Shown piece after piece: positions 1 through 38,255 of a DNA stretch of 64,000 nucleotides (within the stretch, counting starts at the first letter, position 1; each line of letters begins with the position of its first letter). Location: the NCBI GenBank assembly GCA_035578155.1, contig JAPWDM010000001.1, forward strand, positions 83,120,561 through 83,184,560, written 5' to 3'. The notes under the pieces are model-generated. The model saw only the letters and a list, made by a program, of their open reading frames with translations. It did not search any database and was not told the DNA's origin. A program made the position numbers and the translations under genes. Origin of the DNA: Brachynemurus nebulosus. Lineage: Eukaryota > Arthropoda > Insecta > Neuroptera > Myrmeleontidae.

Positions 1-342
1 AAACAGCCACAACGCGTTGTGGTTAACTCAAAAAGACCACAACGCGAAATTCGTGTCGTGGCTTTCATAAGATTTGACCACAACGCGACGTGGTCATTTA
101 AAAAAGCCACAACGCGTTTTAGACAGTTAGCTGATGCAATTGTGACACGACGGACAGATTGTTATTTGTCAACTAACGTATAGGATTCAGGATGTTAAAT
201 AATAAAAGCCTTTCATTAAATTTTTATTCATTTTGAATTCGTAATCTTTTATTAGTAAATATAACAAAATTATTTCTCATATAGGTACTAAATTGCAAAT
301 TAGTTATTTTTAAGCAATACATAGTCATGCATTAAAATCTGT

Positions 343-1425: not shown

Positions 1426-1809
1426 GCTGTAACAGACCAACAAACAACTACAAGCAACTTCACTTGACACCATCTTGATAACATCTTGATGTTATTACAA
1501 TGAGTTGGTTTTCGCGCCAAATTTTCATTTTAAAATTGTAGTTACGTATTTGATCTTTTTTTACAGAATTTATTCAAAATAAAAAGGCCACTTAGTTTAT
1601 ATACAAAAACAAAGCTTTTAGGATAGTTTTTTTTTCAATTTCAGTCAAGTACCCTATTTTATGAACTTCATCAGATTAACAAACAGTCGCGTTATAATTA
1701 AAATTTTTAAAATCAAACAATGGGCGATCCATTGTTTAATTTTATGAATTTCAGCATTGTAGTCATCAAAGAAAATGTAAATACAAAGTTCTGTTTTTAA
1801 AATTGCAAT

Positions 1810-2187
1810 TTAGAGCCACTGGGCAGTCTCAATAATTATTTTAAAAAATTTAAAAAGACAAAATGTCAAACAGTTCATCAGCCTTACAAAAATAACGAAT
1901 TTTTGAATCACAAATACTATTAGATCCATATAATCAATTTCCGTGTCACTTATTTTTAAAACATCATATCGTTTAAGATGACGATAATGTTTTGACGATA
2001 GGGGTTGATTACTTTTTTTGAGAAGCTGAGCCTCCTTTGTGTCTTGAAGTAACGTTTGGTACCGTTCGTTACTAATGAAAAAACTGCGATCGGTATTTAT
2101 CTTTATAAACTCATCCAATTCATCATAAAATACATTCTTTATATTAGCCATGATTAGAGTACTGATGTTTACATTTGGAAATAACAA
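1810..2187 (-). pseudogene. N-terminal fragment of a KRBA2/Ginger-like integrase-type transposase
   Basis: The 125-codon frame contains FFISNERYQTLLQD followed about 20 residues later by YRHLKRYDVLKI. That is the N-terminal signature of the KRAB-A-domain-containing-2-like (Ginger-type) transposase family, which precedes the zinc-binding and integrase domains. After this block the frame becomes hydrophobic and stops, so the HHCC finger and DDE core are missing. It reads as the remnant of the autonomous gene left in a deletion derivative. The likeliest start is the internal Met before ANIKNVFYDELDEF. Family assignment is from memory of the motif and was not searched. Confidence 0.5.
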
Positions 2188-2718
2188 TCAACAATGAATA
2201 CAAACTCAACGGTATTTGATTGCAATGCGCCAATTGACAAATAACAACCTGCCCGTTGTGTCACAATTGCATCAGCTAACGATCTAGAACGCGTTGTGGC
2301 TTTTTTAAATGACCACGTCGCGTTGTGGTCAAATCTTATAAAAGCCACGACGCGAATTTCGCGTTATGGTCTTTTTGAGTTAGCCACAACGCGTTGTGGC
2401 TGTTTTTATAAGTGCCACAACACGAATTTCGCGTTGTGACTGATTTTAAATAACCACAACGCGTTGTGGTCGATTTTTTCGCTCAATGAGCGATTTCGAT
2501 CTTTGAGCGTAACATACACATATCGAAAAAAAGATTTTAAGAACAATTATTTTAATTCATTAATTTTGCGACAAATAATATTTTGTAACTTAATTTTGGT
2601 AACATAATTAATAAATTATTTTTGGCTAGACTGACTTATTGACAATTGTAGCTAATCATTGTTATCCGTAAATTTGAAAATAATTGTATTCATTATAAAA
2701 GTGCAGTGACAAATATAT

Positions 2719-2725
2719 ACATAAC
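2719..2725 (+). repeat. Left target-site duplication of the 14-kb element (ACATAAC)
   Basis: ACATAAC directly precedes the terminal AGTGTCTAT, and the same 7 bases follow the inverted terminus at 16810-16816. A matching direct repeat outside inverted ends is evidence of integration as one unit. Polintons usually give 6 bp, so 7 bp is noteworthy. Confidence 0.75.
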
Positions 2726-2742
2726 AGTGTCTATGAAGCTAG

Positions 2743-4037
2743 CCCCGCCAAGTCATAACCCCGAGATCCCACTTAGGGTATATTTTTTTGCTATTTTTTT
2801 GCTAATTTTTTACCAATGAATTGATTTTTTTTGCCACAGCCGTTACTGAGATACAATGGCGGGGCTGACTTAAGTCTGAAGTCAGCCCCGCCACCCCTAT
2901 ATCTCCGGACCTGCTGCACCTATTCAAATGAAATTTACGGGATATTTTTTTGCTATTTTTTTACCACCGAATTGATTTTTTTGCCACAGCCGTTACCGCG
3001 ATACAATGGTGGGGCTGACTTATATCTGAAGTCAGCCCCGCCACCCCTATATCTCCGGACCTGCTGCACTTATTCAAATGAAATTTACGGGATAATTTTT
3101 TGCTATTTTTTTGCTAATTTTTTACCAACGAATTGATTTTTTTGCCACAGCCGTTACCGAGATACAATGGCGGGGCTGACTTAAGTCTGAAGTCAGCCCT
3201 GCCACCCCTATATCTCCGGACCTGCTGCACTTATTCAAATGAAATTTACGGGATATTTTTTTGCTATTTTTTTGCTATTTTGCTACCATTGAATTGATTT
3301 TTTTGCCACAGCCGTTACCGAGATACAATGGTGGGGCTGACTTATATCTGAAGTCAGCCTCGCCACCCCTATATCTCCGGACCTGCTGCACTTATTCAAA
3401 TGAAATTAAGGGGTATTTTTTTGCTATTTTTTTGCTATTTTTTTTACCACCGAATTGATTTTTTTGTCACAGCCATTACCGAGATACAATGGTGGGACTG
3501 ATTTATATCTGGAGTCAGCCCCGCCACTCCTATATCTCCGGACCTGCTGAACTTATTCAAATGAAATTTACGGGATATTTTTTTGCTATTTTTTTACCAA
3601 CTAATTAATTTTTTTGCCGCAGCCGTTACCGGGATACAATGACGAGGCTGACGTAAATCTGAAGTCAGCCCCGCCACTCCTATATCTCCGGATCTGTTGA
3701 ACTTATTCAAATGAAATTTACGGGATATTTTTTTGCTATTTGTTTACCAACGAACTGATTTTTTTGCCGCAGCCGTTACTGAGATACAATGGCGGGGCTG
3801 ACTTAACTGTGATGTCAGTCCCGCCACCAGTATATCTCCGAACCTGCTGCACTTCTTCAAATGAGATTTACCGGACATTTTTTTACTAATTTTTTTGCTA
3901 TTTTTTTGCCACAGTCGTTGCTGAGAAACAATGGTGCTGCTGACTTAAATCTGAAACCGGTGTAGCCACCACAATATCTCCTGATCTGTTGTACTATCTA
4001 AATGAAATTTGCGGGGTATTTTTTTACTAATTAGTTG
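2743..4037 (+). repeat. Subterminal tandem array, 150-161-bp units with an internal hairpin
   Basis: About eight units; the marker TTGCCACAGC recurs near 2831, 2981, 3142 and 3303, with variants near 3464 and 3616. Each unit has a strong dyad, GCGGGGCTGACTT facing AAGTCAGCCCCGC, then a block resembling ATATCTCCGGACCTGCTGCA and a T-rich spacer. Outer units (near 3900-4020) are the most diverged. Iterated hairpins at both ends of a linear element may serve as replication origin, packaging or end-protection signals. Apparent open frames here are translated repeats, not genes. Confidence 0.85.
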
Positions 4038-4049
4038 CTATTCTAAAAT

Positions 4050-4260
4050 AGTGAGTGTAATCATAATCTTAGGAATATCTTAAGAATATTTACAGCGTAG
4101 TAAGCGGATGAATATTTAAACACTTTTTTTAAACAGAAATAGGCAGGTTTATTACGTACGTAATAATCGTATTTCGACGCGTTCAATCAAAATTTAAAGT
4201 CTCTTTAGCTTCATCAGGCCAAAAAATTTGGTTCGTAACACAAACATGGATATGAATTAT
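4050..4260 (+). repeat. ~205-bp direct repeat, copy 1
   Basis: Starts near GTGAGTGTAATCATAATC and ends near ACAAACATGGATAT. It recurs in the same orientation at 4888-5095. The pair brackets the ubiquitin-protease-like frame and occurs only in the left arm. It could be a solo-LTR-like pair or the trace of a tandem duplication; no primer site or LTR termini were seen. Confidence 0.7.
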
Positions 4261-4277
4261 ACTAACGCATATTATAA

Positions 4278-4703
4278 ATGCATATATTACACAAACGCAT
4301 ATTATTAATGCTAATGACGTTAATGATTAAGTTTTACCTAGTTTTATTTGGTTTTATAGGTGATATGATCCTTTTCGAAATTTTTAACCAAAGTGAAGCA
4401 AATTTTGAATTTAAGCTATCAGAATTGCCAAAAACTTTGAGCAACCCGCTAAATGAGCAAGAAGAGTTGTTGCTCATTGGGGCAGTTGCATATCATGGTA
4501 TGGACGGTAGAAAACTGCCATGTGAAAATGAGAAATCATATGGAGCTTCTGGTCATTACACCGCTTTTGCATATCGAAGAGGTAACACCGGGTGGAAGGA
4601 ATTTGACGATAATGCCATCCATTTACTATATAGGTCTGAAATTCACCATATAGGTCTAAGAGCGTGCCTAGATTATTATTACATGTTAAAAATAGAAGAA
4701 TAA
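4278..4703 (+). CDS. USP/C19-type ubiquitin hydrolase-like fragment
   Basis: The 141-codon frame has the C-terminal half of a ubiquitin-specific protease fold: a beta-strand ending in VAYHG, then GASGHYTAFAYRR (the catalytic His box GHYTA) and GWKEFDDN, the usual W-x-x-FDD block with the supporting Asp/Asn. The N-terminal Cys box is absent, so it cannot be a complete USP; a C-terminal exon or a captured fragment is more likely. The first ~30 residues are hydrophobic and repeat-like, so the true start is uncertain. It lies only in the left arm, between two 205-bp direct repeats, and so was probably gained as cargo. If expressed it could bind ubiquitin, but this is inference. Confidence 0.5.
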   Translation: MHILHKRILLMLMTLMIKFYLVLFGFIGDMILFEIFNQSEANFEFKLSELPKTLSNPLNEQEELLLIGAVAYHGMDGRKLPCENEKSYGASGHYTAFAYRRGNTGWKEFDDNAIHLLYRSEIHHIGLRACLDYYYMLKIEE

Positions 4704-4887
4704 CTGTGTAACTTATAAGCTCTACCATTAAAATTTTTCTAAATTTATATGTATTTTTTTTTATTAAATAATTGAAATAAACCTCTTCCAATTCTCAATG
4801 AATTTAAAATTAATATATTTTACATCGCATTATATCAAATACGCAAGAAATAAATACTAATGCATTGTTTAAAAAATTGTTATAATA

Positions 4888-5095
4888 GTAAGTGTAATCA
4901 TAATCTTAGGAAGATCATAAGAACATTTACAGCATAATAAGCGGATGAATATTTGGAAACTTCTTTTTAACAGAAATAAGCAGGTTTATTATGTACGTGA
5001 TAAACGGATTTCGATGCGTTCAATCAAAATTTAAAGTCTCTTTAGCTTTATCTGGCTAAAAAATTTGGTTTGTAACACAAACATGGATATTAATT
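4888..5095 (+). repeat. ~205-bp direct repeat, copy 2
   Basis: Second copy of the 4050-4260 sequence, about 90% similar by eye. Downstream, 5096-5232 is left-arm-specific sequence with no recognised gene. Confidence 0.7.
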
Positions 5096-5639
5096 ACTTT
5101 AGAATGAATTCTACAGACTCAAGTTACGTTTCAAAGATATAGTTAATCCGCCATCTTCTGTTGCCCACCAAATTGAATTTAAAATGACGGCACATAAATA
5201 ATTGTATTCTACTTGTAACACCCTTTTATTTGATATCAGTAGATAGGCTATACGGGCACGAGCACACCGTAGAACCTCAATTTTCCGGACTACTTTTTTG
5301 ACCGTGTTAAGAACCGTGTAGTTTGGGGTCCTACTGTACCTAGTGTATGAATTGACCTTTGACCTGGCACGTACATGTATTAAAAAATTTGTTGTTGACA
5401 TTTGACCCCAACACTCGCTCATACTGTTAGCCTTGAAATTCGTAAGAGATGAGTCATCACCAGCAACAAAATTAATTTATGTTAACCCATTATGCACCAT
5501 CACAATTTACTTATAACAATTTCATTTTGTGTTAACCCATTATGCGCCGGCACTAATGTAATTTTTGAATGTGAACCTAACGCATGCGCAGATTGAATTT
5601 AAGTACACGACGCATGCGCAGACTAAATTTTAGGTTATA

Positions 5640-6160
5640 ACTTGATAGCTGGGGTACACTACCGCGTCAAAAATGTGGGGTTACCCTAACTCGGGGGTGG
5701 CCCCAAACTTTTGACACCGTACTGTACTTAAATTTTTGGTACACTGCCGTGTCAAAAGTGTGGCCCCCCAGGCCAAAAAGGTACCCTATCACTTTTTGAA
5801 GCGTACTGTACGTGCAAACCTTGACCCCAACACGCGCTTGCCTTAATTGCGCCATCTTAAACGAACTATCACGTCAAAAAATGTGGGGAATACCCTAACC
5901 CAGGAGTGGCCCCAAACTTTTGACGCCGTACTGTACTTAAATTTTTGGTACACTGCCGTGTCAAAAGTGCGGGCCCCCCTGAGTAAAAAGGTGTCCGATC
6001 ATTTGTTGAAGCGCACTGTACGTGCAAACCTTAACCCCAACACGCGCTTACCTTAATTGCGTCATTTTAAACGAACTACCAAGTCAAAAATGTGGGGAAT
6101 ACCCTAACCCAAGGGGAGGCCGCTAAATTTTGTGGGGGCACTGTACCAAGCGCTACCGCA
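5640..6160 (+). repeat. Inner tandem repeat, ~220-bp units (left arm)
   Basis: Roughly two and a half units containing GGTACACTGCCGTGTCAAAA, then CAAACCTTGACCCCAACACG, and CGAACTA(T/C)CA. The same array is inverted at 14240-14770. Just outside (5460-5630) are doublets ATTATGC(A/G)CC and GACGCATGCGCAGA. No coding sense; a repeat with possible regulatory or replication use. Confidence 0.7.
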
Positions 6161-7371
6161 AAACTAACTTTAGACTCCAGGGTCTAGATGTCTGACCGCT
6201 ACTGTACTGCCGGAAATTTGGGTGTCAACTGTAACTCAGGGGTTTTTTTGTATATTTAACCTTGGACAATTCCAGGAATTTTTATCAGTTTTAACATAAA
6301 CAAACAACCAATAATTAAATGTTTGTTTTAGCTGAATTATGATCGTAAGACTCATATAAGAAGTTTTTTTGGTATAAGAAAGATGACGTCATGGAATATT
6401 AATGAGTTAAAAAATTGTTTAGTAAAAAATATCACCCATTGTAGGCCTCAAGCAAGAAATTATTTTTATCAGTTTTAATACTTTAACATTTAACCTACAG
6501 TGACCAATTTTTTAGTTAACTAACAGAAGTTCTTGAAATTTTAACAAGTTACAAAAAATATTACTTCTTATGGTGCACAACATTTTTGAATTTGACTGTA
6601 GCACAAAACTGTTTCTATATCAAACGAAAATTATCTGAAATAATTCAGTATGTACATATGTATAGACTTTGTATATTAAAAATATTTTATGTATACACTC
6701 TGTATATTGAGAATAAGAAAGAAAATTTGTATATAATTTTAATTTTTATGAATACTAGTAAACGAATTGTATAGCCATTTATGAATAAGTATTAAATCTA
6801 ATTATAAAATATAAATATTGCAAAAAATTTGTTTAATCAGCAAAATCAATGTATATCATTTTAATACTGATACATATTCATATTAGGGTATAATAGTATT
6901 GTATTTAACATTTTTAAACAGAATAAAAGTTCAATTTTTGGTTTTAAATTACTATAAGTTAAACACGTCGCTTAATATAAAAAAGATAACAGCATTGAGT
7001 TTTACTAAATTTTTAAGTCTGTAAAATCAAAATTTTTTATTTACTAGACTAGAACATTTTGAATTTGCTACTCTATCATTAACATACAAATAATATCATG
7101 TATATATAACGGGTGTATATTTAGTATTTTTAGTAAATATTTTAGTATACAGGGTGTATCATGAAATATGCTTTTCAATTAGAACAATAAATTTCATAAG
7201 ATTTTTGTTAATACTCTTATAGGTTAACGAAAGAAACTTTTTGCTGTAAAAAATAGGGGAATGCATGGTAATAATTAAATAAAACGCACATATTTTTTTT
7301 TTTTTTTAATTTTATTTATAGAATATGTATACAAAAAATTAAATTGCTTAAATCTATATATTACTTAAAAT
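6161..7371. other. AT-rich gene-less stretch of the left arm
   Basis: Mirrored at 13197-14240. Holds poorly complex AT sequence with short repeats such as TGTATA and TTTTTATCAGTTTTA. A 62-codon frame (6586-6774) is identical in both arms, but this follows from arm identity; its composition (I/Y/K-rich) does not look like a gene. No RNA gene seen. Confidence 0.5.
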
Positions 7372-7857
7372 CTATTTATTTTCCATATAAAAATTTTTTA
7401 AAAGAATACAATTTTCTAATGAACAAATTTTATCTGAATGAAGCATACAGCGTCTTGAATAATATTCATCTCGCAGAATGAAAATCTTCGGTACATCAAA
7501 TATTTCTTCCAAATTCAAAATCCACGGCTGGTTTTCGGTACCATCAAACAAACTTGATATCCATTTCTTCTTTTCACCACCCTTGACGTATATAACATCA
7601 TACTTCTTTAATATAGGTTTCAATATGGTATGAAGTTTTTTGTATGGAATAAATCCATACGACCAAGGTATCCCATGCCAATTTCGGTAAAGCCAACTGG
7701 CTACTCGTTGATATTTCTTCGGCAACTCGTTGAAATCAAACGGTGCGTCGAATATAAGATGTAATATATCATCCGAATTTTCTGCAGCAATACCAACTTC
7801 TTTAAAATAAAATTCGTTGTTAGCTCCTTGATAGCCTTGTATGTCAAGAAACGCCAT
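7372..7857 (-). CDS. Exonuclease-like (RNase H-fold-related) protein, left-arm copy
   Basis: 161 aa. The N-terminus LDIQGYQGANNEFYFKEVG resembles the first strand and acidic motif of DnaQ-like/RNase H-fold exonuclease relatives. Mid-protein HGIPWSYGFIPY, then VIYVKGGEKKKW, and a C-terminal C-x4-H...C pair that may bind metal. A related, broken copy lies inside the Polinton at 45408-45690, with the same order of motifs (KEL(S/G)I, WL...H, YVKG.E). The start is set by an ATG preceded by a TATA box and a TCAGT initiator. The last ~12 codons differ from the right-arm copy because of a local indel near 7291-7408. The acidic motif is D-x-Q rather than D-x-E, so catalytic activity is doubtful. Confidence 0.65.
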   Translation of the reverse strand: MAFLDIQGYQGANNEFYFKEVGIAAENSDDILHLIFDAPFDFNELPKKYQRVASWLYRNWHGIPWSYGFIPYKKLHTILKPILKKYDVIYVKGGEKKKWISSLFDGTENQPWILNLEEIFDVPKIFILRDEYYSRRCMLHSDKICSLENCILLKNFYMENK

Positions 7858-8020
7858 TTTTTACCGCCACCGTAGAACTGAAATTATTCACACAATCCAC
7901 AACTTTATATAGAATAATTAAAAGTGGTGGGGGTAGTTAGTTAATTTGTGGAACGTATTCGAAAATGGCTATTAATAGCTATTGCTAGTTTATCATCAAA
8001 TTACAAACTGTTAATAATAT

Positions 8021-8197
8021 TTAGCACATTTGTGAGTACCAGGTTCTTTTCACTTTAAGACCTAATGATTTAAGGAATGCTAAATTTTCAGGTGAAATGT
8101 GTTGTTGCTCAAAAGTTTTACGTTTAATGATCTTAGGTTTCGAAAGTCCTTTGCTAGGTTCTCTAGCGGTGGACGGCGCTGAATTGTAAATTAACAT
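8021..8197 (-). CDS. 58-aa small basic protein, left-arm copy
   Basis: Unrecognised. Reads from the only ATG downstream of a TATA-like GGGTATAAAATAG (mirror of 12219-12231). Basic mid-section (KPKIIKRKTFEQQH) followed by a helix-like ISPENLAFLKSLGLKV. The right-arm copy at 12338-12514 differs only in the final residue (Cys here, Tyr there). Conservation of both copies is compatible with function, but arm identity alone could explain it. Position next to the exonuclease-like gene, same direction. Confidence 0.5.
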   Translation of the reverse strand: MLIYNSAPSTAREPSKGLSKPKIIKRKTFEQQHISPENLAFLKSLGLKVKRTWYSQMC

Positions 8198-8377
8198 GGT
8201 TCCAAAATGTAATTGTTTTACCACGAAAGTATAATTTTCAACGAAAGAGATGTTAACTCTTTGACAACCACCGGTAAATAGATAATATTTTATGTAAGTT
8301 CAACTATTTTATACCCTTCAACCATGATAAGGTGTATAAGCTTGAGTATAACTCAGCAAATTATATAGCGGTGGTGA

Positions 8378-8582
8378 CGTAACACACAAATGCGGTGGCT
8401 GTGTTGCGTTTGTGGCGGTGGCGGTGTTTGTGTGGCGGTTGTGTGGTGGTGGCGGTGGTGTTTGTGTGGCGGTGGCGGTGGTGTTTGTGTGGTGGCGGCG
8501 GTGGTGTTTGTGTGGCGGTGGTGGTATTTGTATGGTGGTTTCGTTGGTTGTGTGGTGGTTGTGGGGGTGGCGGGGTAGCAGC
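8378..8582 (+). repeat. GGT/GGC-type triplet tract, left arm
   Basis: Dense GGTGGCGGTGGTGTTTGTGT-type repeats, G-rich on the plus strand. Mirrored C-rich at 11951-12165. It lies upstream of the 58-aa gene (minus strand) and of the central Cys-rich genes (plus strand). Long open frames in all phases are repeat artefacts. G-quadruplex potential is inferred from the runs. Confidence 0.8.
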
Positions 8583-8797
8583 GGTGTTTGCGGCTGACGT
8601 GCACAACTTTATCATTAATTCAATCGAAGCAGCAATTTACTGTAGACAATAAATCGGTGGTGACATCTCGCGGTGTTTGTTGAACGCAATATCTAAATTA
8701 ATCAATCTGGTGACGTTCCTCTTCCCTGCTCTTATGCTGGAAGATTATTAGATATCGATTTTAGATAAAATATTGGAAAATTTCGGTTACAAAATAC

Positions 8798-8835
8798 TAT
8801 AAATACAACTGAAGTACTAACCGGATGTCACTTGT
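8798..8835 (+). promoter_or_regulatory. TATA promoter of Cys-rich gene 1
   Basis: ACTATAAATACAACTGAA (near 8798) followed about 26 bases on by CCGGATGTCACTTGTTGGTT, a possible initiator, then ATG at 8871. The same arrangement is repeated before the second copy near 9265-9305, so the promoter was duplicated with its gene. CCGGATGTCA also occurs near 10721, before the C2H2 gene. Confidence 0.55.
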
Positions 8836-8870
8836 TGGTTAAGTTCCAGAAGGTAAACAACAACAGCAAC

Positions 8871-9059
8871 ATGCCGATTTGTGGTATTTGTAAATTTCAA
8901 CCGTCACAGTGTAAGTGTGCCTTCTACGAGTACTGTGATAGGTGTCGAAATGAAAAACGAATTTGCATGTGTTGTAAACGATGTATGATGCCATTTCCAA
9001 ACTGTGTTTGCAATTATATAAACTGTGCCAAATGTAAAAGCCGCTGCAATTGCAAATAA
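8871..9059 (+). CDS. Small Cys-rich zinc-binding-like protein, copy 1
   Basis: 62 aa from ATG 8871. About 16 cysteines in C-x2-C, C-x-C and CC pairs (CGICKF, CKC, CDRC, CMCCKRC, CVC, CAKCKSRCNC), with basic residues between. This suggests a compact metal-binding module, perhaps nucleic-acid or protein binding; no family recognised. It has a TATA promoter and a duplicated neighbour at 9338. After the stop sits an inverted motif TTGACCAATTCCAC (9099) facing GTGGAATTGGTCAA (9193). Confidence 0.6.
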   Translation: MPICGICKFQPSQCKCAFYEYCDRCRNEKRICMCCKRCMMPFPNCVCNYINCAKCKSRCNCK

Positions 9060-9337
9060 TTTAGTAAAATCAATCATCTGATTGCCACATAATACATATT
9101 GACCAATTCCACGGTTGCTCAAACCAACGTAAACATTTATTTATAACGCAATGACCAGCGATGTAATGAGGCATAATGGATATTTTGTGTAACAGTGGAA
9201 TTGGTCAATATCGATTAAATATCGATTTTTTATAAAATATTGGATTATTTGGTTTCAGTCAAAATACTATAAATACAACTGAATTATTAACCGGATGTCA
9301 TTTGTTGGTTAAGTTCCAGAAAGTAAACAAAAACAAC

Positions 9338-9526
9338 ATGCCGATTTGTGGTATTTGTAAATTTCAACCACCACAGTGTAAGTGTTCCTTCCCCGAGTAT
9401 TGTGATAGGTGTCGAAACGAAAAACGAATTTGCATGTGTTGTAAACGATGTATGATGCCATTTCCAAACTGTGTTTGCAATTATGTAAACTGTACCACAT
9501 GTAAAAGCCGCTGCAATTGCGAATAA
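9338..9526 (+). CDS. Small Cys-rich zinc-binding-like protein, copy 2
   Basis: 62 aa; tandem duplicate of the gene at 8871 with all cysteines kept and a handful of changes elsewhere (for example CAFYEY to CSFPEY, CAKCK to CTTCK). Retention of the Cys pattern while other residues changed points to selection. Promoter (TATA near 9265) and 3' inverted motif (9565 and 9641) are duplicated too. Confidence 0.6.
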   Translation: MPICGICKFQPPQCKCSFPEYCDRCRNEKRICMCCKRCMMPFPNCVCNYVNCTTCKSRCNCE

Positions 9527-9844
9527 TTTAGTAAAATCAATCACCTGATTGCCACATCATAAGTATTGACCAATTCCACGGTTGTTAAAACAAACATTAT
9601 CATTTATTTAGTAATGAGGTATAACGTATATTTTGAGTAACAGTGGAATTGACCAATAGCTATTAATCAGTATTAAAGTTTTTGTTGAATACTCAAAATA
9701 TACATTATACCTCATTATTAAATAAATGTTAATGTTTATTTGATATTTTCCATTGGTTGTGGTGTATAAACACTGATCATATGAAGGTGTGGTTGCTTTA
9801 GAGTAACTTAATTTGTAGCTGTGTGGGAATACACATATCGGTGG

Positions 9845-9960
9845 GGTAAAATGAGCAACTCAAATTTTGTAGTTGTGTTGGGGTGGTGGTGGTGGTGGTG
9901 GTGGCGGTGGTGGTGGTGGTGGTTTTTGTGGTGGCAACTCATAATTTATTTAAGCGACGT
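9845..9960 (+). promoter_or_regulatory. Upstream control region of the OB-fold-like gene
   Basis: TAAAATGAGCAACTCA near 9847, then a pure GGT/GGC tract (about 9881-9932), then a weak TATA-like ATAATTTATTTAAG (9941), ATG at 9993. The same motif order (TAAAATGAGCAACTCA, triplet tract, TATA) precedes the C2H2 gene at 10747-10908. Confidence 0.5.
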
Positions 9961-9992
9961 GCTGTAACAGAAATTGGTAGTGTATTGGCAAA

Positions 9993-10355
9993 ATGTCTGA
10001 ACAACACGGTGTTGAGTTAAGTATAAGTGATCTGTGGACCACTTTTACTGCCACTGATACAACAATGGATCCGGTTTTGGAGAAGTTGAATAAACTTGGT
10101 GCTGGTAAACCATTCAAATCGCTATCTACACTCAAACCGTATGAAACGTGGAAAATTCTTGATGTACGACGCATGGAAACTCGATATGGGCCAGCGGTTG
10201 CGGTGGAACTTGCAGATGCTCAAGTGTTCCTTCCAAAACGATTCGCGGATTTGGATGAGCAGACCATTCAATGTTTACGTAGAGGACAATATTTTATTAC
10301 ATATAAAGGAACTGATTCTAGTGGTTTTTTACATATTGTGGAATTTAGTAAATAG
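9993..10355 (+). CDS. OB-fold-like ssDNA-binding protein candidate
   Basis: 120 aa. After a ~40-residue leader, the C-terminal 75 residues show the spacing of a five-stranded OB fold: WKILDVRRMETRYGPAVAVEL, then VFLPKRFADL, a short helix (DEQTIQCLRRG), and FITYKGTDSSGFLHIVEF. Similar small proteins (ILDV-x-x-x-x-T-x-YG, FLPKRF, Y-K-G-T, I-V-E-F) occur in insect mobile elements and viruses and are thought to bind single-stranded DNA; this is recollection, not a search. Next to Cys-rich and C2H2 genes in the unique centre. A polyadenylation-type AATAAA follows near 10462. Confidence 0.6.
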   Translation: MSEQHGVELSISDLWTTFTATDTTMDPVLEKLNKLGAGKPFKSLSTLKPYETWKILDVRRMETRYGPAVAVELADAQVFLPKRFADLDEQTIQCLRRGQYFITYKGTDSSGFLHIVEFSK

Positions 10356-10743
10356 CTATCACATGTATGATGTTAGATGTAAGATTAAGGTAACTGTCAG
10401 ATATGAAAATGAATTGATTTACTTTTTAATTTTAATGCTGTAAACGTATATTTCATTAAAAAATAAATTATTTTACGTATAAATTTTTATATTGTTCTTA
10501 TTTTACAACACACTAGAACCTCCCAAATTATATCTTGAATTATGATAAGACTCTCAGTAGGTATGGACGCAGTTGGCAACGCAATATAATTGCCTATATT
10601 CAGGAGAAAGTATTCTAATGTTGGTGTTGAGTCACCTGACACTTGCATATGGCTCTTCATTCATTTTTCTGAACTAATTTCCAAACCGAAAGAGCGTAAT
10701 GGGGGCAAAATGTGTAAGCCGGATGTCAACAGCTACTTCATGG
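10356..10743. other. Intergenic stretch between the OB-fold-like and C2H2 genes
   Basis: AT-rich, holds the putative poly(A) signal of the upstream gene (near 10462) and CCGGATGTCAACAGC near 10721, a motif shared with the Cys-rich promoters. No gene seen. Confidence 0.5.
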
Positions 10744-10908
10744 AGTAAAATGAGCAACTCAGATGTGGTGTTTGCGGCGGCGGCGGCGGTGGTGGCGGCG
10801 GCGGCGGTGGTGGTGGCGGCGGCGGTGGTGGCGGTGGCGACGGCGGTGGTGGTGGTGGCGGCGGTGGTGGTGGCGGTGGCGGCGGTGGTGGTGGTGGAGT
10901 ATATAAGT
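10744..10908 (+). promoter_or_regulatory. Upstream control region of the C2H2 gene with GGC/GGT tract
   Basis: TAAAATGAGCAACTCAGATG at 10746, then about 125 bases of GCG/GTG triplets, then GTATATAAGT (10899-10908), about 63 bases before ATG 10971. The frame across the tract (poly-Ala/Val) is a repeat artefact. Confidence 0.6.
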
Positions 10909-10970
10909 AATCGCTAACACAATTCTGAATTAATCTTGTAAGACTAGTTGAGCTTTACACATCTATTATA

Positions 10971-11837
10971 ATGTTCGAGTGTACGCGGTGCTATAAAAGC
11001 TTCTCGCGGAAAGATTCTCTTTCACGTCATATAAGAAATACACATATGCGGGAATTTTCACCAAAAAGGTTTGAAAATAGTTACTCTCTTGATCCGCTAA
11101 AAAGACAAACATTAGACACGGCTGATGACTTATCTAGTTATGATACCGGGAGGAATGATGTTGATGATGAATTTCTAAACAATAAAGTTGAAGAAAGGGT
11201 CAATCCACTTGAACAAAGAATTAAAGCTGCATCAAAAGCAATTCAAACTAAATTTAATAATTTAAGAAATCAAAATAATGTTTACACACCCAGCGATGAG
11301 TCTAATAACAGGGTTTTAACCACTTCTGATAGTGGAACTGTTATCATTCCCAAGTTAACTACAGCTTTGCAAACCCTTTTGGATATTTTATTAATCAAAG
11401 AAACTCAAAATAAAGTTGAGGATTCTAATGAACGAATAGCAATAAAACGTCCAGTCAATTCAACGGACCAAGAGCTGCTTGCTAAGCGTATCAAATACAA
11501 CGACTCGGAAAATGCTAATGGGCAATCGAAAAAAATAAAATACTGGCATAATCCTAATACTTTAATAAATGAATTACGACGTTTATACGAGACTTCAGAG
11601 ACTGGTGAAAAAATACTCAATATTATTCGGAGTATAGAGGAAAATAAAAACATATTGTTTAACGTTGACGATAGTGAAGCTTTAATCGAAGAGTTAGATG
11701 CTTTAAGAGAATCTACTGTCGGTCAAGAAATATTCTCTATACTTCGTGAACTCCAAAAGGCTGATGTTATTGAGCCACTAGGTGATTATCTGGATGAAAC
11801 TGATAAAGAAGATGCTAGCGATTATGATGATGATTAA
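10971..11837 (+). CDS. C2H2 zinc-finger protein with acidic, coiled-coil-like C-terminus
   Basis: 288 aa. Residues 3-26 are a canonical finger (C-x2-C, F-S-R-K-D-S-L, H-x4-H). The next ~100 residues are charged and Asn/Ser-rich; residues ~85-150 are likely helical. From ~175 a repeat-like pattern appears twice: INELRRLYETSETGEKILNI and IEELDALRESTVGQEIFSIL, each a ~28-residue Leu-rich module. The C-terminus is very acidic (ending DASDYDDD). Plausible as a DNA-binding regulator or structural core-like protein. Proteins with a single N-terminal finger of this kind occur in insect Polinton/adintovirus-type elements, but I cannot name this one. Its stop codon lies at the first bases of the right arm. 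Confidence 0.6.
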   Translation: MFECTRCYKSFSRKDSLSRHIRNTHMREFSPKRFENSYSLDPLKRQTLDTADDLSSYDTGRNDVDDEFLNNKVEERVNPLEQRIKAASKAIQTKFNNLRNQNNVYTPSDESNNRVLTTSDSGTVIIPKLTTALQTLLDILLIKETQNKVEDSNERIAIKRPVNSTDQELLAKRIKYNDSENANGQSKKIKYWHNPNTLINELRRLYETSETGEKILNIIRSIEENKNILFNVDDSEALIEELDALRESTVGQEIFSILRELQKADVIEPLGDYLDETDKEDASDYDDD

Positions 11838-11950
11838 TTTAGATATTGCGTTCAACAAACACCGCGAGATGTCACCACCGATTTATTGTCTACAGTAAAT
11901 TGCTGCTTCGATTGAATTAATGATAAAGTTGTGCACGTCAGCCGCAAACA

Positions 11951-12165
11951 CCGCTGCTACCCCGCCACCCCCACAACCACTACACAACCACCGAAACCAC
12001 CATACAAATACCACCACCGCCACACAAACACCACCGCCGCCACCACACAAACACCACCGCCACCGCCACACAAACACCACCGCCACCACCACACAACCGC
12101 CACACAAACACCGCCACCGCCACAAACGCAACACAGCCACCGCATTTGTGTGTTACGTCACCACC
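11951..12165 (-). repeat. CCACCG-type triplet tract, right arm
   Basis: Mirror of 8378-8582 (G-rich on the minus strand). It ends about 55 bases before the TATA-like element of the 58-aa gene. Confidence 0.8.
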
Positions 12166-12218
12166 GCTATATAATTTGCTGAGTTATACTCAAGCTTATA
12201 CACCTTATCATGGTTGAA

Positions 12219-12231
12219 GGGTATAAAATAG
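12219..12231 (+). promoter_or_regulatory. TATA box of the 58-aa gene, right arm
   Basis: GGGTATAAAATAG, about 107 bases before ATG 12338; mirrored in the left arm. A second TATA-like CTATATAATT lies near 12167. Confidence 0.45.
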
Positions 12232-12337
12232 TTGAACTTACATAAAATATTATCTATTTACCGGTGGTTGTCAAAGAGTTAACATCTCTTTCGTTGAAAA
12301 TTATACTTTCGTGGTAAAACAATTACATTTTGGAACC

Positions 12338-12514
12338 ATGTTAATTTACAATTCAGCGCCGTCCACCGCTAGAGAACCTAGCAAAGGACTTTCGAAACCT
12401 AAGATCATTAAACGTAAAACTTTTGAGCAACAACACATTTCACCTGAAAATTTAGCATTCCTTAAATCATTAGGTCTTAAAGTGAAAAGAACCTGGTACT
12501 CACAAATGTACTAA
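12338..12514 (+). CDS. 58-aa small basic protein, right-arm copy
   Basis: Same protein as 8021-8197 (minus) except that the last residue is Tyr instead of Cys. Function unknown. It precedes the exonuclease-like gene in the same direction by 163 bases. The two arms thus give the element two convergent copies of this gene pair, both transcribed away from the centre. Confidence 0.5.
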   Translation: MLIYNSAPSTAREPSKGLSKPKIIKRKTFEQQHISPENLAFLKSLGLKVKRTWYSQMY

Positions 12515-12621
12515 ATATTATTAACAGTTTGTAATTTGATGATAAACTAGCAATAGCTATTAATAGCCATTTTCGAATACGTTCCACAAATTAACTAACT
12601 ACCCCCACCACTTTTAATTAT

Positions 12622-12657
12622 TCTATATAAAGTTGTGGATTGTGTGAATAATTTCAG
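12622..12657 (+). promoter_or_regulatory. TATA plus TCAGT initiator of the exonuclease-like gene, right arm
   Basis: TCTATATAAAG (12622) and TTTCAGTTC (about 12651) are spaced ~29 bases, the arthropod core-promoter arrangement; ATG follows at 12678. Identical in the left arm on the minus strand. Confidence 0.65.
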
Positions 12658-12677
12658 TTCTACGGTGGCGGTAAAAA

Positions 12678-13196
12678 ATGGCGTTTCTTGACATACAAGG
12701 CTATCAAGGAGCTAACAACGAATTTTATTTTAAAGAAGTTGGTATTGCTGCAGAAAATTCGGATGATATATTACATCTTATATTCGACGCACCGTTTGAT
12801 TTCAACGAGTTGCCGAAGAAATATCAACGAGTAGCCAGTTGGCTTTACCGAAATTGGCATGGGATACCTTGGTCGTATGGATTTATTCCATACAAAAAAC
12901 TTCATACCATATTGAAACCTATATTAAAGAAGTATGATGTTATATACGTCAAGGGTGGTGAAAAGAAGAAATGGATATCAAGTTTGTTTGATGGTACCGA
13001 AAACCAGCCGTGGATTTTGAATTTGGAAGAAATATTTGATGTACCGAAGATTTCCATTCTGCGAGATGAATATTATTCAAGACGCTGTATGCTTCATTCA
13101 GATAAAATTTGTTCATTAGAAAATTGTATGTGCGTTTTATTTAATTATTACCCTGCATTCCCCTATTTTTTTACAGGAAAAAGTTTCTTTCGTTAA
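12678..13196 (+). CDS. Exonuclease-like (RNase H-fold-related) protein, right-arm copy
   Basis: 172 aa; residues 1-149 match the left-arm copy with one visible change (KIFIL to KISIL). After SLENC the reading frame continues into different sequence (MCVLFNYYPAFPY...), because the ~110-bp segment present at 7291-7408 in the left arm is missing here. The 23-residue tail therefore looks acquired by deletion, and the left-arm ending is probably ancestral. Other comments as for the left copy. Confidence 0.6.
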   Translation: MAFLDIQGYQGANNEFYFKEVGIAAENSDDILHLIFDAPFDFNELPKKYQRVASWLYRNWHGIPWSYGFIPYKKLHTILKPILKKYDVIYVKGGEKKKWISSLFDGTENQPWILNLEEIFDVPKISILRDEYYSRRCMLHSDKICSLENCMCVLFNYYPAFPYFFTGKSFFR

Positions 13197-14239
13197 CCTA
13201 TAAGAGTATTAACAAAAATCTTATGAAATTTATTGTTCTAATTGAAAAGTATATTTCATGATTACCCTGTATACTAAAATATTTACTAAAAATACTAAAT
13301 ATACACCCGTTATATATACATGATATTATTTGTATGTTAATGATAGAGTAGCAAATTCAAAATGTTCTAGTCTAGTAAATAAAAGATTTTGATTTTACAG
13401 ACTTAAAAATTTAGTAAAACTCAATGCTGTTATCTTTTTTATATTAAGCGACGTGTTTAACTTATAGTAATTTAAAACCAAAAATTGAACTTTTATTCTG
13501 TTTAAAAATGTTAAATACAATACTATTATACCCTAATATGAATATGTATCAGTATTAAAATGATATACATCGATTTTGCTGATTAAACAAATTTTTTGCA
13601 ATATTTATATTTTATAATTAGATTTAATACTTATTCATAAATGGCTATACAATTCGTTTACTAGTATTCATAAAAATTAAAATTATATACAAATTTTCTT
13701 TCTTATTCTCAATATACAGAGTGTATACATAAAATATTTTTAATATACAGAGTCTATACATATGTACATACTGAATTATTTCAGATAATTTTCGTTTGAT
13801 ATAGAAACAGTTTTGTGCTACAGTCAAATTCAAAAATGTTGTGCACCATAAGAAGTAATATTTTTTGTAACTTGTTAAAATTTCAAGAACTTCTGTTAGT
13901 TAACTAAAAAATTGGTCACTGTAGGTTAAATGTTAAAGTATTAAAACTGATAAAAATAATTTCTTGCTTGAGGCCTACAATGGGTGATATTTTTTACTAA
14001 ACAATTTTTTAACTCATTAATATTCCATGACGTCATCTTTCTTATACCAAAAAAACTCCTTATATGAGTCTTACGATCATAATCCAGCTAAAACAAACAT
14101 TTAATTATTGGTTGTTTGTTTATGTTAAAACTGATAAAAATTCCTGGAATTTTCCAAGGTTAAATATACAAAAAAACCCCTGAGTTACAGTTGACACCCA
14201 AATTTCCGGCAGTACAGTAGCGGTCAGACATCTGGACCC
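13197..14239. other. AT-rich gene-less stretch of the right arm
   Basis: Mirror of 6161-7290. No gene or RNA gene seen. Confidence 0.5.
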
Positions 14240-14770
14240 TGGAGTCTAAAGTTAGTTTTGCGGTAGCGCTTGGTACAGTGCCCCCACAAAATTTAGCGGC
14301 CTCCCCTTGGGTTAGGGTATTCCCCACATTTTTGACTTGGTAGTTCGTTTAAAATGACGCAATTAAGGTAAGCGCGTGTTGGGGTTAAGGTTTGCACGTA
14401 CAGTGCGCTTCAACAAATGATCGGACACCTTTTTACTCAGGGGGGCCCGCACTTTTGACACGGCAGTGTACCAAAAATTTAAGTACAGTACGGCGTCAAA
14501 AGTTTGGGGCCACTCCTGGGTTAGGGTATTCCCCACATTTTTTGACGTGATAGTTCGTTTAAGATGGCGCAATTAAGGCAAGCGCGTGTTGGGGTCAAGG
14601 TTTGCACGTACAGTACGCTTCAAAAAGTGATAGGGTACCTTTTTGGCCTGGGGGGGCCACACTTTTGACACGGCAGTGTACCAAAAATTTAAGTACAGTA
14701 CGGTGTCAAAAGTTTGGGGCCACCCCCGAGTTAGGGTAACCCCACATTTTTGACGCGGTAGTGTACCCCA
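14240..14770 (-). repeat. Inner tandem repeat, ~220-bp units (right arm)
   Basis: Reverse complement of 5640-6160, with the same number of units and almost the same bases. Between it and 15187 lies mirrored unique sequence containing the ATTATGCNCC and GCGCATGCGT doublets. Confidence 0.7.
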
Positions 14771-15187
14771 GCTATCAAGTTATAACCTAAAATTTAGTCT
14801 GCGCATGCGTCGTGTACTTAAATTCAATCTGCGCATGCGTTAGGTTCACATTCAAAAATTACATTAGTGCCGGCGCATAATGGGTTAACACAAAATGAAA
14901 TTGTTATAAGTAAATTGTGATGGTGCATAATGGGTTAACATAAATTAATTTTGTTGCTGGTGATGACTCATCTCTTACGAATTTCAAGGCTAACAGTATG
15001 AGCGAGTGTTGGGGTCAAATGTCAACAACAAATTTTTTAATACATGTACGTGCCAGGTCAAAGGTCAATTCATACACTAGGTACAGTAGGACCCCAAACT
15101 ACACGGTTCTTAACACGGTCAAAAAAGTAGTCCGGAAAATTGAGGTTCTACGGTGTGCTCGTGCCCGTATAGCCTATCTACTGATAT

Positions 15188-15460
15188 CCATATTAAGAGA
15201 GTTGCAAAAGAGGTAATCCGTCATTTGCCGTAATGGCCACCATGTTTGAATCCACCATAATACCGAAAGCACTACTTTGTACTGCCATTAAAATCAAAGG
15301 TTCGTGCAAAATTTCAGCATAACCAGATATCGGTAAGTATTCAAGAATCAATTTTCAGATTTAGGCCGGATAATTTTACTAAAAGCTTATAATAATACTT
15401 TACGGGAGTGGAGTATAGCATACAAGGGAATGAAATTTGCAATGTTAAATCAACTGTTAG
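15188..15460. other. Right-arm-specific patch
   Basis: Replaces the 1,195-bp left-arm segment 4038-5232. No repeats and no gene recognised. Which arm is ancestral is unknown. Confidence 0.5.
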
Positions 15461-16790
15461 AATAGCAACTAATTAGTAAAAAAATATCCCGCAAATTTCA
15501 TTTAGATAAGTGCAACAGATCCGGAAACATTGTGGTAGCTACACCGGTTTCAGATTTAAGTCAGCAGCACCATTGTTTCTCAGCAACGACTGTGGCAAAA
15601 AAATAAATTCGTTGGCAAAAAAATAGCAAAAAAATTAGTAAAAAAATATCCCGTAAATCTCATTTGAAGAAGTGCAGCAGGTTCGGAGATATACTGATGG
15701 CGGGGCTGACATCAGAGTTAAGTCAGTCCCGCCATTGTATCTCGGTAACGGCTGCGGCCAAAAAATCAGTTCGTTGGTAAACAAATAGCAAAAAAATATC
15801 CCGTAAATTTCATTTGAATAAGTTCAGCAGGTCCGGAGATATAGGAGTGGCGGGGCTGACTTCAGACTTAAGTAAGCTCCGCTATTGTATCTCGGTAACG
15901 ACTGTGGCAAAAAAATTAATTCGTAGGTAAAAAAATAGCAAAAAAACATCAAAAGAAGTATCCCGTAAATTTCATTTGAATAAGTAGAGCAGGTCCGCAG
16001 ATATAGGGGTGGCGGGGCTGGTTTCAGATTTAAGTTAGCTCCGCCATTGTATCTCGGTGACGACTGTGGCAAAAAAATCAATTCGGTGGTAAAAAAATAG
16101 CAAAAAAATTGCCAAAAAATATCCCGTAAATTTCATTTGAATAAGTGCAGCAGGTCCGGAGATAAAGGGGTGGCGTGGCTGACTTCAGATATAAGTCAGC
16201 CCCACCATTGTATCTCGGTAACGGCTGTGGCAAAAAAATCGATTCGTTGGTAAAAAAATGGCAAAAAAATAGCAAAAAAATATCCCGTAAATTTTATTTG
16301 AATAAGTACAGCAGGTCCGGAGATATAGGGGTGGCGGGGCTGACTTCAGATATAAGTCAGCCCCACCATTATATCTCGGTAATGGCTGTGGCAAAAAAAT
16401 CAATTCGGTGGTAAAAAAATAGCAAAAAAACATCAAAAAAAGTATCCCGTAAATTTCATTTGAATAAGTAGAGCAGGTCCGGAGATATAGGGGTGGCGGG
16501 GCTGACTTCAGATATAAGTCAGCCCCACCATTGTATCTCGGTAATGGCTGTGGCAAAAAAATCAATTCGTTGGTAAAAAAATGGCAAAACAATAGCAAAA
16601 AAATATCCCATAAATTTTATTTGAATAAGTACAGCAGGTCCGGAGATATAGGGATGGCGGGGCTGATTTCAGACTTAAGCCAGCCCCGCCATTGTATCTC
16701 GGTAACGGCTGTGGCAAAAAAATCAATTCGTTGTTAAAAAATAGCAAAAAAATATAGCCTAAGTGGGATCTCGGGGTTATGACTTGGCGG
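15461..16790 (-). repeat. Subterminal tandem array of the right arm
   Basis: Inverted version of 2743-4037 with the same hairpin-bearing 150-161-bp units. Several units here carry CATCAAAA(G/A)AAGTATCCC variants not seen at left, so the two arrays evolve separately. Confidence 0.85.
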
Positions 16791-16809
16791 GGCTAGCTTT
16801 ATAGACACT

Positions 16810-16816
16810 ACATAAC
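16810..16816 (+). repeat. Right target-site duplication (ACATAAC)
   Basis: Directly follows the terminus ATAGACACT and equals 2719-2725. Confidence 0.75.
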
Positions 16817-17353
16817 AATTGCCCACCTGTGGGTGAGCAGGACACAACATACAAATCAAGGTATTTAAACTACTTCTACTTCATTTATATATTTTATAGT
16901 CTTACCCAAACAATTTCTATCATAATGACATCACTCACACAAAAACAATACCCAAACAAATCCAACACAACAAAATAATTTAACTTTTTCTGAAACAATG
17001 AAACAAAATACACATTGTTACCTCCAAAAAATCAAGCAATACTAATTAATCCAATACCAAAAGCAAACTTAAAAAAATATATTATTGCATTAAGCAATAT
17101 TATAAATCCAAATAAAATAACGTACGCTTCAAAAATCTCAAATAACACAATCTGCGTATATCTAAGATCAGAAAGAAGATGACGTAACAGCTCTCTTGAA
17201 TAACCATCAAAACCTAAAGATAAATAATCAAACTACCAGTATGAGAAGTTTCCTAACTTCAAGTCACTCGTTAATGATTTGGGCTCTACCAACCAAACCA
17301 AACGAAGTAAAAATCACAGAATTAAATAAACTCAAAATTAGAACAACATCCGA

Positions 17354-23965: not shown

Positions 23966-24274
23966 TTCACTAAAAGCAATTATCCGTAACCGTAACCGTA
24001 TCCGAAACATTTTCCGATATTATTATATATCCGTAACCGAAACCGAAAAAAATGTTTCTTAATATCCGTATCCGTATTCGTATCCGAAATTTCATATCCG
24101 TAACATCTCTAGTATGTATTTAATTTATGTGACATGTCATTTAAATTAAATAAATTCATCTTTTTTATTGTTTTCAATTTTGAGAAATAGAAGTATAGTT
24201 GCTTATTAAAAATTTGTTTTTCAATAATAAAAAATCTTAGCAAATAGCTTAGCAAAATCTTAGCAGTACGTCTT

Positions 24275-37904: not shown

Positions 37905-38255
37905 TAACTTCGACTATTATATTCATATCATCAACTTAGAAAATTATAAAGAAAATTTAACTAATATAGAGAAATCAATTAATATTATTTAACATAAATT
38001 TACAAATAAAGAATTTAAGGATGTACTTCGTTTAAAATTGCAAGAATTAACTAAAAATCTTGAAATCATTCTACCAAGAAAATTATTAAAAAGGTGCTTA
38101 ATCGACGGGTTAGGTACAGCTACTGAGGAAATTACAAACAATATACACATCGAATGAAATAAACACATCGAAACATTAAAATTAAATCAAAATAATATAG
38201 TTACTCAATTAAACACACAAGTTAGTAAAAATTCACAGATGATGATAGTAGCCTA
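37905..38255 (+). pseudogene. Errantivirus env remnant
   Basis: KFTNKEFKDVLRLKLQELTK, then a basic furin-like boundary LLKRCLIDGLGTA, which is the cleavage/fusion-peptide region of insect errantivirus envelope proteins. Stops near 37990 and 38155. The gene is cut off just before the Polinton's left end. Confidence 0.55.

What the first reader, a model, noticed from the sequence alone, without database searches (positions are those of the whole stretch)
2726..16809. A 14-kb giant palindromic, virus-like element with gene-bearing arms
Seen: two long near-identical inverted arms around a 3.1-kb unique centre, exact 7-bp flanking duplication ACATAAC, iterated hairpin arrays at both ends, pol II promoters, and small genes for an OB-fold-like, an exonuclease-like, Cys-rich and C2H2 proteins. 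No polymerase, integrase, transposase or capsid. Known: gene-bearing inverted termini are found in linear dsDNA viruses; Polintons have TIRs of 0.1-1 kb. Inference: an undescribed class of virus-derived element or a satellite that relies on Polinton/adintovirus enzymes.
Basis: partly seen in the sequence, partly recalled or inferred. Interest (0 to 1): 0.9.

Follow-up and report, generated by a model that had tools for sequence, protein, structure and literature searches.

The report
Polinton-like satellite inside a foldback transposon
The 14-kb palindrome is two nested mobile elements, and the inner one looks like an abundant, virus-like element that copies and inserts itself with borrowed Polinton virus enzymes while carrying its own genes in unusually long mirrored ends.

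Summary
The inverted structure is real, but it is two nested elements. The outer one (2727-16808) is a foldback transposon with tandem-hairpin ends GTGTC...GACAC and a 9-bp duplication, TACATAACA. Nine-base duplications flank 18 of 18 copies with both ends recognised, and 19 of 20 fetched relatives show the inner element's site empty. The UCH-like ORF belongs to it.

Inside sits a separate 9.9-kb element (5238-15182). It begins AGTAGATAGGCTA, has exact 6-bp duplications (5 of 5 copies read at both ends), and inverted arms of 3.2-3.9 kb carrying a gene, around OB-like, C2H2 and two Cys-rich genes. No polymerase or integrase was found in it. The OB-like gene has 150 scored places, the C2H2 gene 135, at 97-100% identity. 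Arms within a copy are 99.55-100% identical, between copies 94.8-96.8%, so arms are homogenised. Polinton-type integrases abound in the genome (150 scored of 1807 candidates).

Best reading: a non-autonomous, gene-bearing Polinton satellite. Not shown: that its ends match an autonomous Polinton (search unanswered), and any protein function.

The parts
2718..2726 (+). Left 9-bp target-site duplication TACATAACA of the outer foldback element
   Evidence: 9/9 match with 16809-16817; 18 of 18 copies with both ends recognised have it, 16 exact and 2 with 8/9
2727..4040 (+). Left terminal hairpin array of the outer foldback element (about 161-bp units)
4041..5231 (+). Middle domain of the outer foldback element, left of the insertion
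   Evidence: present in relatives without the inner element
4278..4703 (+). 141-aa UCH-like ORF, belongs to the outer element
   Evidence: PF00443 E 0.012, below the curated cut-off; related ORFs in L012, L013, L023
5232..5237 (+). Left 6-bp target-site duplication GATATC of the inner element
5238..8704 (+). Left inverted arm of the inner element
5238..5250 (+). Terminal core AGTAGATAGGCTA, the same in the inner-element ends listed and at C1:46.1 Mb
   Evidence: the ends were looked for by their first 10 bases
5658..6111 (+). About 209-bp repeat, 2.2 copies, in the arm (mirrored at 14287-14762)
7372..7857 (-).
8021..8197 (-). 58-aa ORF in the arm (mirrored at 12338-12514)
8871..9059 (+). Cys-rich 62-aa gene 1
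9338..9526 (+). Cys-rich 62-aa gene 2, tandem duplicate of gene 1
9846..9862 (+). 17-bp motif GTAAAATGAGCAACTCA upstream of the OB-like gene; identical copy at 10745-10761 upstream of the C2H2 gene
   Evidence: 6 of 100 shuffles have two or more matches at up to 3 mismatches; motif picked by eye
9993..10355 (+). 120-aa OB-like gene, 150 places scored in the genome
10971..11837 (+). 288-aa gene with one N-terminal C2H2 finger, 135 places scored in the genome
11831..15182 (-). Right inverted arm of the inner element (lacks 116 bp at the 3' end of its gene)
12678..13196 (+). Right-arm copy of the 161-aa gene; its 3' end is changed by the 116-bp difference (172-aa frame)
15183..15188 (+). Right 6-bp target-site duplication GATATC of the inner element
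15189..15460 (+). Middle domain of the outer foldback element, right of the insertion
15461..16808 (-). Right terminal hairpin array of the outer foldback element, ending GACAC
16809..16817 (+). Right 9-bp target-site duplication TACATAACA

Best explanation
The locus is a nest. First, a foldback transposon (Mutator-like by its 9-bp duplication) inserted in the host. Later a second element of 9.9 kb inserted into its middle. The inner element is a non-autonomous satellite of Polintons: Polinton integrase recognises its AGTAGATAGG ends and inserts the linear DNA with a 6-bp duplication, and Polinton protein-primed PolB copies it from those ends. Its very long arms are kept identical during this replication, because a displaced strand can fold on its arms (panhandle) and one arm is recopied from the other. 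Snap-back copying occasionally extends the arms to take in central genes. Its own small genes (OB-like, C2H2, Cys-rich, arm gene) would help it exploit or compete with the helper. Shown: nesting, both duplications, copy number, homogenised arms, no polymerase or integrase recognised in it, Polinton-type integrases in the genome. Inferred: the use of Polinton integrase and PolB, the panhandle and snap-back steps, and the roles of the proteins.
For: Outer element: 9-bp duplication in 18 of 18 copies with both ends recognised, 16 exact and 2 with 8/9; L012 and L013 may be one insertion seen twice. Empty inner site in 19 of 20 fetched relatives, no inner match over 200 bp in 20 of 20. Inner element: exact 6-bp duplications in 5 of 5 copies read at both ends, GATATC, TATGTA, CATGTA, TATTTG, CTGAGC (with the right flank of the fifth), ends AGT...ACT with the same 13-base core. 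Vertebrate Mavericks have 6-bp duplications and AGT or AG terminal motifs (PMC8097293, passages). Copy number: OB-like gene 150 scored of 1660 candidates, C2H2 gene 135 scored of 2966. Arms within a copy 99.55, 99.78, 99.95 and 100% identical, between copies 94.8-96.8%; left and right arm of each copy pair in 4 of 4. Helpers: integrase 150 scored of 1807 candidates, many with open frames of about 310-317 aa; the query ORF matches retroviral-type integrases (best E 0.00029; PFV integrase 0.00077). One of those integrase places (C1:46118607) lies about 1.4 kb from an open 1332-aa PolB-like frame beside an inner copy. Comparing the two lists by eye, one of 150 OB places lies within 15 kb of one of 150 integrase places, so the two genes sit in different elements. 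Five loci show inverted pairs of central genes (by eye; one seen in sequence, L043/L044), as snap-back copying would give.
Against: The Polinton in the window (about 38.2-49.8 kb) has a left end AGTAGCCTAGCTATG that ranks only 43 of 5433 AG positions, and no clear duplication. Most integrase places were not looked at in context; only the window's and the one at C1:46.1 Mb were seen beside other Polinton-like genes. The PolB-like label of L055 rests on a recalled motif: Pfam gave no polymerase domain at E 0.01 and the 60 PDB matches shown of 119 are zinc-finger proteins. Arm identity could also come from gene conversion or another replication route. Protein roles are guesses: apart from the C2H2 finger the inner element's proteins tested have no significant Pfam, PHROG or PDB match, and the structure models are poor.
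Confidence: 0.7

Rival explanations
1. One undescribed 14-kb virus-like element with gene-bearing arms, as first read.
For: The whole 14 kb is an inverted structure with a direct duplication at its ends.
Against: 19 of 20 relatives with the same ends have an empty site where the inner element sits and 0 of 20 hold an inner match over 200 bp; the inner element has its own duplication here and four other copies lie elsewhere with their own duplications.
Confidence: 0.02
2. The inner element is an autonomous virus or transposon of an unknown kind whose polymerase and integrase are among its small unrecognised proteins, or in spliced genes that were not read.
For: The arm gene, the OB-like and the Cys-rich proteins match no Pfam or PHROG family (arm gene and OB-like, Cys-rich), frames were read without introns, so an unknown enzyme cannot be excluded.
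Against: The largest frame is 288 aa, small for a polymerase; ends and 6-bp duplications look like those of Polintons, whose integrases abound here.
Confidence: 0.11
3. The inner element is a plain internal-deletion derivative of an autonomous Polinton, and its genes are ordinary accessory genes of that Polinton.
For: The C2H2 finger resembles the two N-terminal fingers of the PolB-like frame in L055 (11/24 and 10/25 identities, E 5e-5 and 6e-5), and both match phrog_6283 (E 5e-4 and 0.011).
Against: One of 150 OB-like places lies within 15 kb of one of 150 integrase places (by eye); the C2H2 match covers one finger only. The scored places are the best candidates only, so a rare or diverged autonomous relative could be missing.
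Confidence: 0.14

Closest known systems
Polinton/Maverick (adintovirus-like) elements
   Same: 6-bp duplications, AGT...ACT type ends, inverted terminal repeats; Polinton-type integrases abundant in the same genome
   Different: No polymerase or integrase found in the inner element, capsid, protease and ATPase not recognised; 9.9 kb against 12.7-24.6 kb, and arms of 3.2-3.9 kb against 46-1447 bp, in intact vertebrate Mavericks (PMC8097293, passages); arms carry a gene
Foldback transposons (Tetris, Tm1, Galileo)
   Same: The outer element: long composite inverted ends with tandem repeats; 9-bp duplication as in Tm1 (most commonly 9 bp, PMC3169594, passages) and Tetris (8-10 bp, PMC4079207, passages)
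   Different: No Mutator-type transposase was recognised in the six ORFs tested; Galileo makes 7-bp duplications (PMC2775673, passages), so it is not Galileo
Virophages and satellite viruses
   Same: In how it would work: uses a helper's enzymes and carries its own small gene set (recalled)
   Different: No recognised capsid or own polymerase; the helper would be a genomic Polinton; dependence not tested
Adenovirus, poxvirus and other linear viral genomes with inverted terminal repeats
   Same: Identical inverted ends, possible panhandle and terminal copying (recalled)
   Different: No shared genes found; an entomopoxvirus has 8.4-kb inverted ends on a 219.9-kb genome (PMC8363768, passage)

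Membership tests
Polinton/Maverick | 6-bp target-site duplication | tested here: met
   5 of 5 inner copies read at both ends, all exact
Polinton/Maverick | AG/AGT...CT/ACT termini | tested here: met
   AGTAGATAGG...CCTATCTACT in the same 5 copies; the (AGT)2 or (AG)3 motif of vertebrate Mavericks is not present
[quoted passage not shown]
   No such frame in 5238-15182; largest frame 288 aa, read without introns
Polinton/Maverick | Retroviral-like integrase | tested here: not met
   None recognised among the frames of 5238-15182 that were sent to Pfam
Polinton/Maverick | Capsid, protease and ATPase genes | tested here: inconclusive
   None recognised, but small unrecognised proteins cannot be ruled out
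Non-autonomous satellite of a resident Polinton | Same termini as an autonomous Polinton of the genome | tested here: inconclusive
   Window Polinton left end ranks 43 of 5433; genome-wide end search unanswered (last)
Non-autonomous satellite of a resident Polinton | Mobilised in trans | not testable with these tools
   Needs an experiment
Foldback / Mutator-like (outer element) | 8-10 bp duplication | tested here: met
   9 bp in 18 of 18 copies with both ends recognised, 16 exact
Foldback / Mutator-like (outer element) | Long inverted ends with inner tandem repeats | tested here: met
Foldback / Mutator-like (outer element) | Mutator-type transposase in autonomous copies | tested here: inconclusive
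   Six ORFs from L020, L024, L025 gave no transposase family; one has a Znf_SCAND3 zinc finger, E 9e-8
Galileo (P superfamily) | 7-bp duplication | tested here: not met
   9 bp

The most novel reading that the evidence does not exclude
A class of animal genomic 'virophage-like' satellites of Polintons: high-copy linear DNA parasites with no replication, integration or capsid genes, conserved small genes of their own, and giant gene-bearing inverted ends that are recopied from each other in every replication cycle and grow by snap-back copying.
Probability: 0.48. Interest if true: 0.85.

Novelty: new variant of a known kind. Interest (0 to 1): 0.7.

Why it matters
If right, Polintons in an animal-like genome support a family of gene-carrying satellites, giving them an ecology of helper and parasite known (as I recall) mainly from virophages and giant viruses. 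The homogenised arms are a trace, readable from genome sequence alone, of how such linear DNAs replicate, and extra-long or dimeric copies make the origin of long inverted viral termini testable. It also warns that nested palindromes can be mistaken for one new element: the empty site settles it.

Tried and rejected
One 14-kb element: rejected by empty sites in 19 of 20 relatives. Galileo-like element with 7-bp duplication: rejected, the duplication is 9 bp. Assembly artefact: unlikely, other loci have other duplications and the window's arms differ. Right arm having lost the left segment by recombination between the direct repeats 4044-4259 and 4881-5096: rejected, the right segment is unrelated and belongs to the foldback middle. 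Shared AGTGTC ends of outer element and window Polinton: dropped, the outer element starts at GTGTC and the A before it is target. No second copy within the window at E 1e-3. Structure prediction without an alignment: arm protein mean pLDDT 33.5, useless; OB-like 51.7, six strands; no PDB match at E 0.001 or better, best E 0.11 (PilP), best single-stranded-DNA-binding protein E 0.17.

Selection test: one search mixed the two Cys-rich paralogues; one search sorted them. The OB-like value (pN/pS 0.036, 1 against 8 changes) is biased, because the loci were picked by OB protein similarity. In the same loci: C2H2 0.37 (37 against 26; 1 gapped and 10 partial stretches dropped), Cys-rich 1 0.40 (12 against 6), Cys-rich 2 0.70 (10 against 3, one stretch with a stop), arm gene 0.70 (6 against 2). 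So constraint is suggested for C2H2 and hardly testable for the rest. Promoter scan tool not run; TATA-like and polyadenylation-like sites were only seen by eye. Rfam on window 1-20000: one tRNA at 966-1038, outside the element.
Full report
WHAT IS THERE. The window lies in a 960-Mb assembly of 138 contigs. The reported 2726-16809 structure is inverted at most points, but self-comparison shows three unlike layers: terminal arrays of about 161-bp hairpin units at both ends, unlike segments just inside them (4041-5231 and 15189-15460), and near-identical inner arms (5238-8704 and 11831-15182) around a 3126-bp centre.

OUTER ELEMENT. A genome search with 2726-4000 gave 101 matches, with only the best candidates scored, many as facing pairs. 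Twenty stretches around them were fetched. In 18 places with both ends recognised (17 of the 20 fetched, plus the window) the element runs from GTGTC to GACAC and is flanked by 9-bp duplications, 16 exact and 2 with 8 of 9 bases; L012 and L013 share the same duplication and flank and may be one insertion seen twice. The three left out of that count (L016, L021, L025) had one recognised end only. In the window the duplication is TACATAACA, so the reported 7-bp ACATAAC is part of it. The 17 other copies measure 2852 to 6467 bp; the window's is 14082 bp because of the insertion. In 19 of 20 fetched stretches the sequences matching window 5237 and 15182 meet directly, and 0 of 20 have an inner-element match over 200 bp, simple-repeat matches around 8.4-8.6 kb set aside. 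The exception, L018, lacks the left middle part. The UCH-like ORF (PF00443 E 0.012, below its cut-off) has relatives in L012, L013 and L023 and so belongs here. The structure and the 9-bp duplication fit foldback elements such as Tm1 and Tetris (PMC3169594 and PMC4079207, passages read), which those papers place in or near the Mutator superfamily; no transposase was recognised by Pfam in six ORFs of L020, L024 and L025, one of which has a Znf_SCAND3 finger.

INNER ELEMENT. It spans 5238-15182 (9945 bp), begins AGTAGATAGGCTA and ends with its reverse complement, and is flanked by GATATC on both sides. Four other copies were read at both ends: TATGTA (C106), CATGTA (C58), TATTTG (C116) and CTGAGC (C1:46.1 Mb), all exact. 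The first 13 bases are the same in the ends seen, the following bases differ by subfamily; ends were looked for by their first 10 bases, but in C106, C58 and C116 the same borders, within a few bases, also come from comparing left with right arm. No foldback-array match is listed in the flanks read of C106, C58 and C116 or in L055. The C106 copy is flanked by other repeats that face each other.

COPY NUMBER AND STATE. The OB-like protein finds 150 scored places out of 1660 first-look candidates, 97-100% identical, 148 of 150 without a stop. The C2H2 protein finds 135 scored of 2966 candidates, 97-100% identical; by my reading five carry a stop. Only the best candidates were scored, so the numbers are lower bounds and the identities are biased upward; not every place was shown to be a complete element. 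In fetched loci other than the window the OB-like gene showed 8 synonymous and 1 non-synonymous distinct changes (24 stretches, some in overlapping loci, 8 distinct), but these loci had been picked by OB protein similarity; the C2H2 gene gave 26 and 37 (pN/pS 0.37, 13 stretches, 1 gapped and 10 partial dropped), the Cys-rich genes 6 and 12 (0.40) and 3 and 10 (0.70), the arm gene 2 and 6 (0.70). One search had mixed the two Cys-rich paralogues; the values given are those. Shortened forms exist: L030 lacks the Cys-rich region and L048 has the OB-like gene alone between arms, with the arm gene cut short.

ARMS. Aligned arms of four copies: within a copy 99.55 (window), 99.78 (C106), 99.95 (C58) and 100% (C116); between copies 94.8-96.8%; the two arms of each copy pair together in 4 of 4. 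The arms were therefore made identical to each other not long before, or at, insertion, or later by conversion. Gaps were set aside in these figures; the window's right arm lacks 116 bp, including the end of its gene. Inverted pairs of central genes at five loci (C58:23.74, C106:25.91, C17:6.19, C95:11.74 and C109:0.29 Mb), read by eye and seen in sequence for the first (L043/L044), show that arms can extend into the centre.

HELPERS. An integrase-like ORF of the window's decayed Polinton (44798-45271) matches retroviral-type integrases (best E 0.00029, PFV integrase 0.00077) and finds 150 scored places of 1807 candidates in this genome; many are open frames of 310-317 aa at 50-52% identity to the query. 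Most of these places were not looked at further. One, C1:46118607, lies about 1.4 kb from an open 1332-aa frame next to the inner copy at C1:46.1 Mb. That frame has YMDTDS (polymerase motif, recalled), two N-terminal C2H2 fingers and an endonuclease VII-like patch; Pfam gave no polymerase domain at E 0.01 and the 60 PDB matches shown of 119 were zinc-finger proteins. The finger of the inner element's C2H2 protein resembles those fingers (E 5e-5), which could be only the general C2H2 pattern.

MECHANISM. Shown: insertion with a 6-bp duplication, conserved ends, no polymerase or integrase recognised, homogenised arms, many near-identical copies, many Polinton-type integrases. Inferred: integration by a Polinton integrase, replication by Polinton PolB from the ends, homogenisation through panhandle intermediates, arm growth by snap-back copying. 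These inferred steps follow from recalled knowledge of protein-primed linear genomes. Two of the central genes share an exact 17-bp motif upstream (9846-9862 and 10745-10761; mean 0.38 matches expected at up to 3 mismatches, 6 of 100 shuffles with two or more), beside G-rich repeats, which hints at joint regulation; the motif was picked by eye.

WHAT IS MISSING. The link to one autonomous Polinton. The window's Polinton has AGTAGCCTAGCTATG at 38247, similar to the inner end but only rank 43 of 5433 AG positions, and its duplication is not clear. The genome search for the end core was sent many times and never answered (last). The protein database was off.

LITERATURE. In the listings seen (30 of 464 papers, 15 of 21, 15 of 39, 15 of 59, 20 of 605, 15 of 81, 0 found in 117, 3 of 3) no title or abstract start describes a gene-bearing non-autonomous Polinton; the six exact phrases gave 0 papers. 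Subscription papers and preprints are not in that library, and non-autonomous Polintons may be listed in repeat databases (recalled, not checked). Vertebrate Mavericks: terminal repeats 46-1447 bp, 6-bp duplications (PMC8097293, passages). Of the papers cited only passages were read.

The Cys-rich values were recomputed, the integrase E-values and the PolB label were put more exactly, and confidence was lowered slightly because the polymerase label and the Polinton context of most integrases are less firm than first written.

Noticed in passing
window about 38247-49760: Decayed Polinton/adintovirus-like element: about 480-bp inverted ends 89% alike, Pox_A32-like frame (E 0.0037, below cut-off), integrase-like frame, frame with YTDTDS, in pieces.
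   Followed up: partly
G000 genome: 150 Polinton-type integrase places scored of 1807 candidates, in several subfamilies with near-identical scores: apparently a very Polinton-rich genome.
   Followed up: partly
window 24272-26900, 59732-61982, 17357-19577: Three more elements with inverted ends of 0.6-0.8 kb; the first two share parts about 70-75% identical, and a relative of the first flanks the inner copy on C106 on both sides.
   Followed up: no
L055:3733-7731: Open 1332-aa PolB-like frame with two N-terminal C2H2 fingers and an endonuclease VII-like patch.
   Followed up: partly
window 8411-8570, 9882-9934, 10774-10897: GGT/GCG-rich repeat tracts upstream of the arm, OB-like and C2H2 genes.
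   Followed up: no
L012 and L013 (contig C93, about 288 kb apart): Foldback insertion with the same duplication and flank twice on one contig: duplication or assembly redundancy.
   Followed up: no
window 8747-9666: The two Cys-rich genes come from a tandem duplication, 86% identical over 475 bp.
   Followed up: partly
window 966-1038, - strand: tRNA match (Rfam RF00005, 36.7 bits).
   Followed up: no
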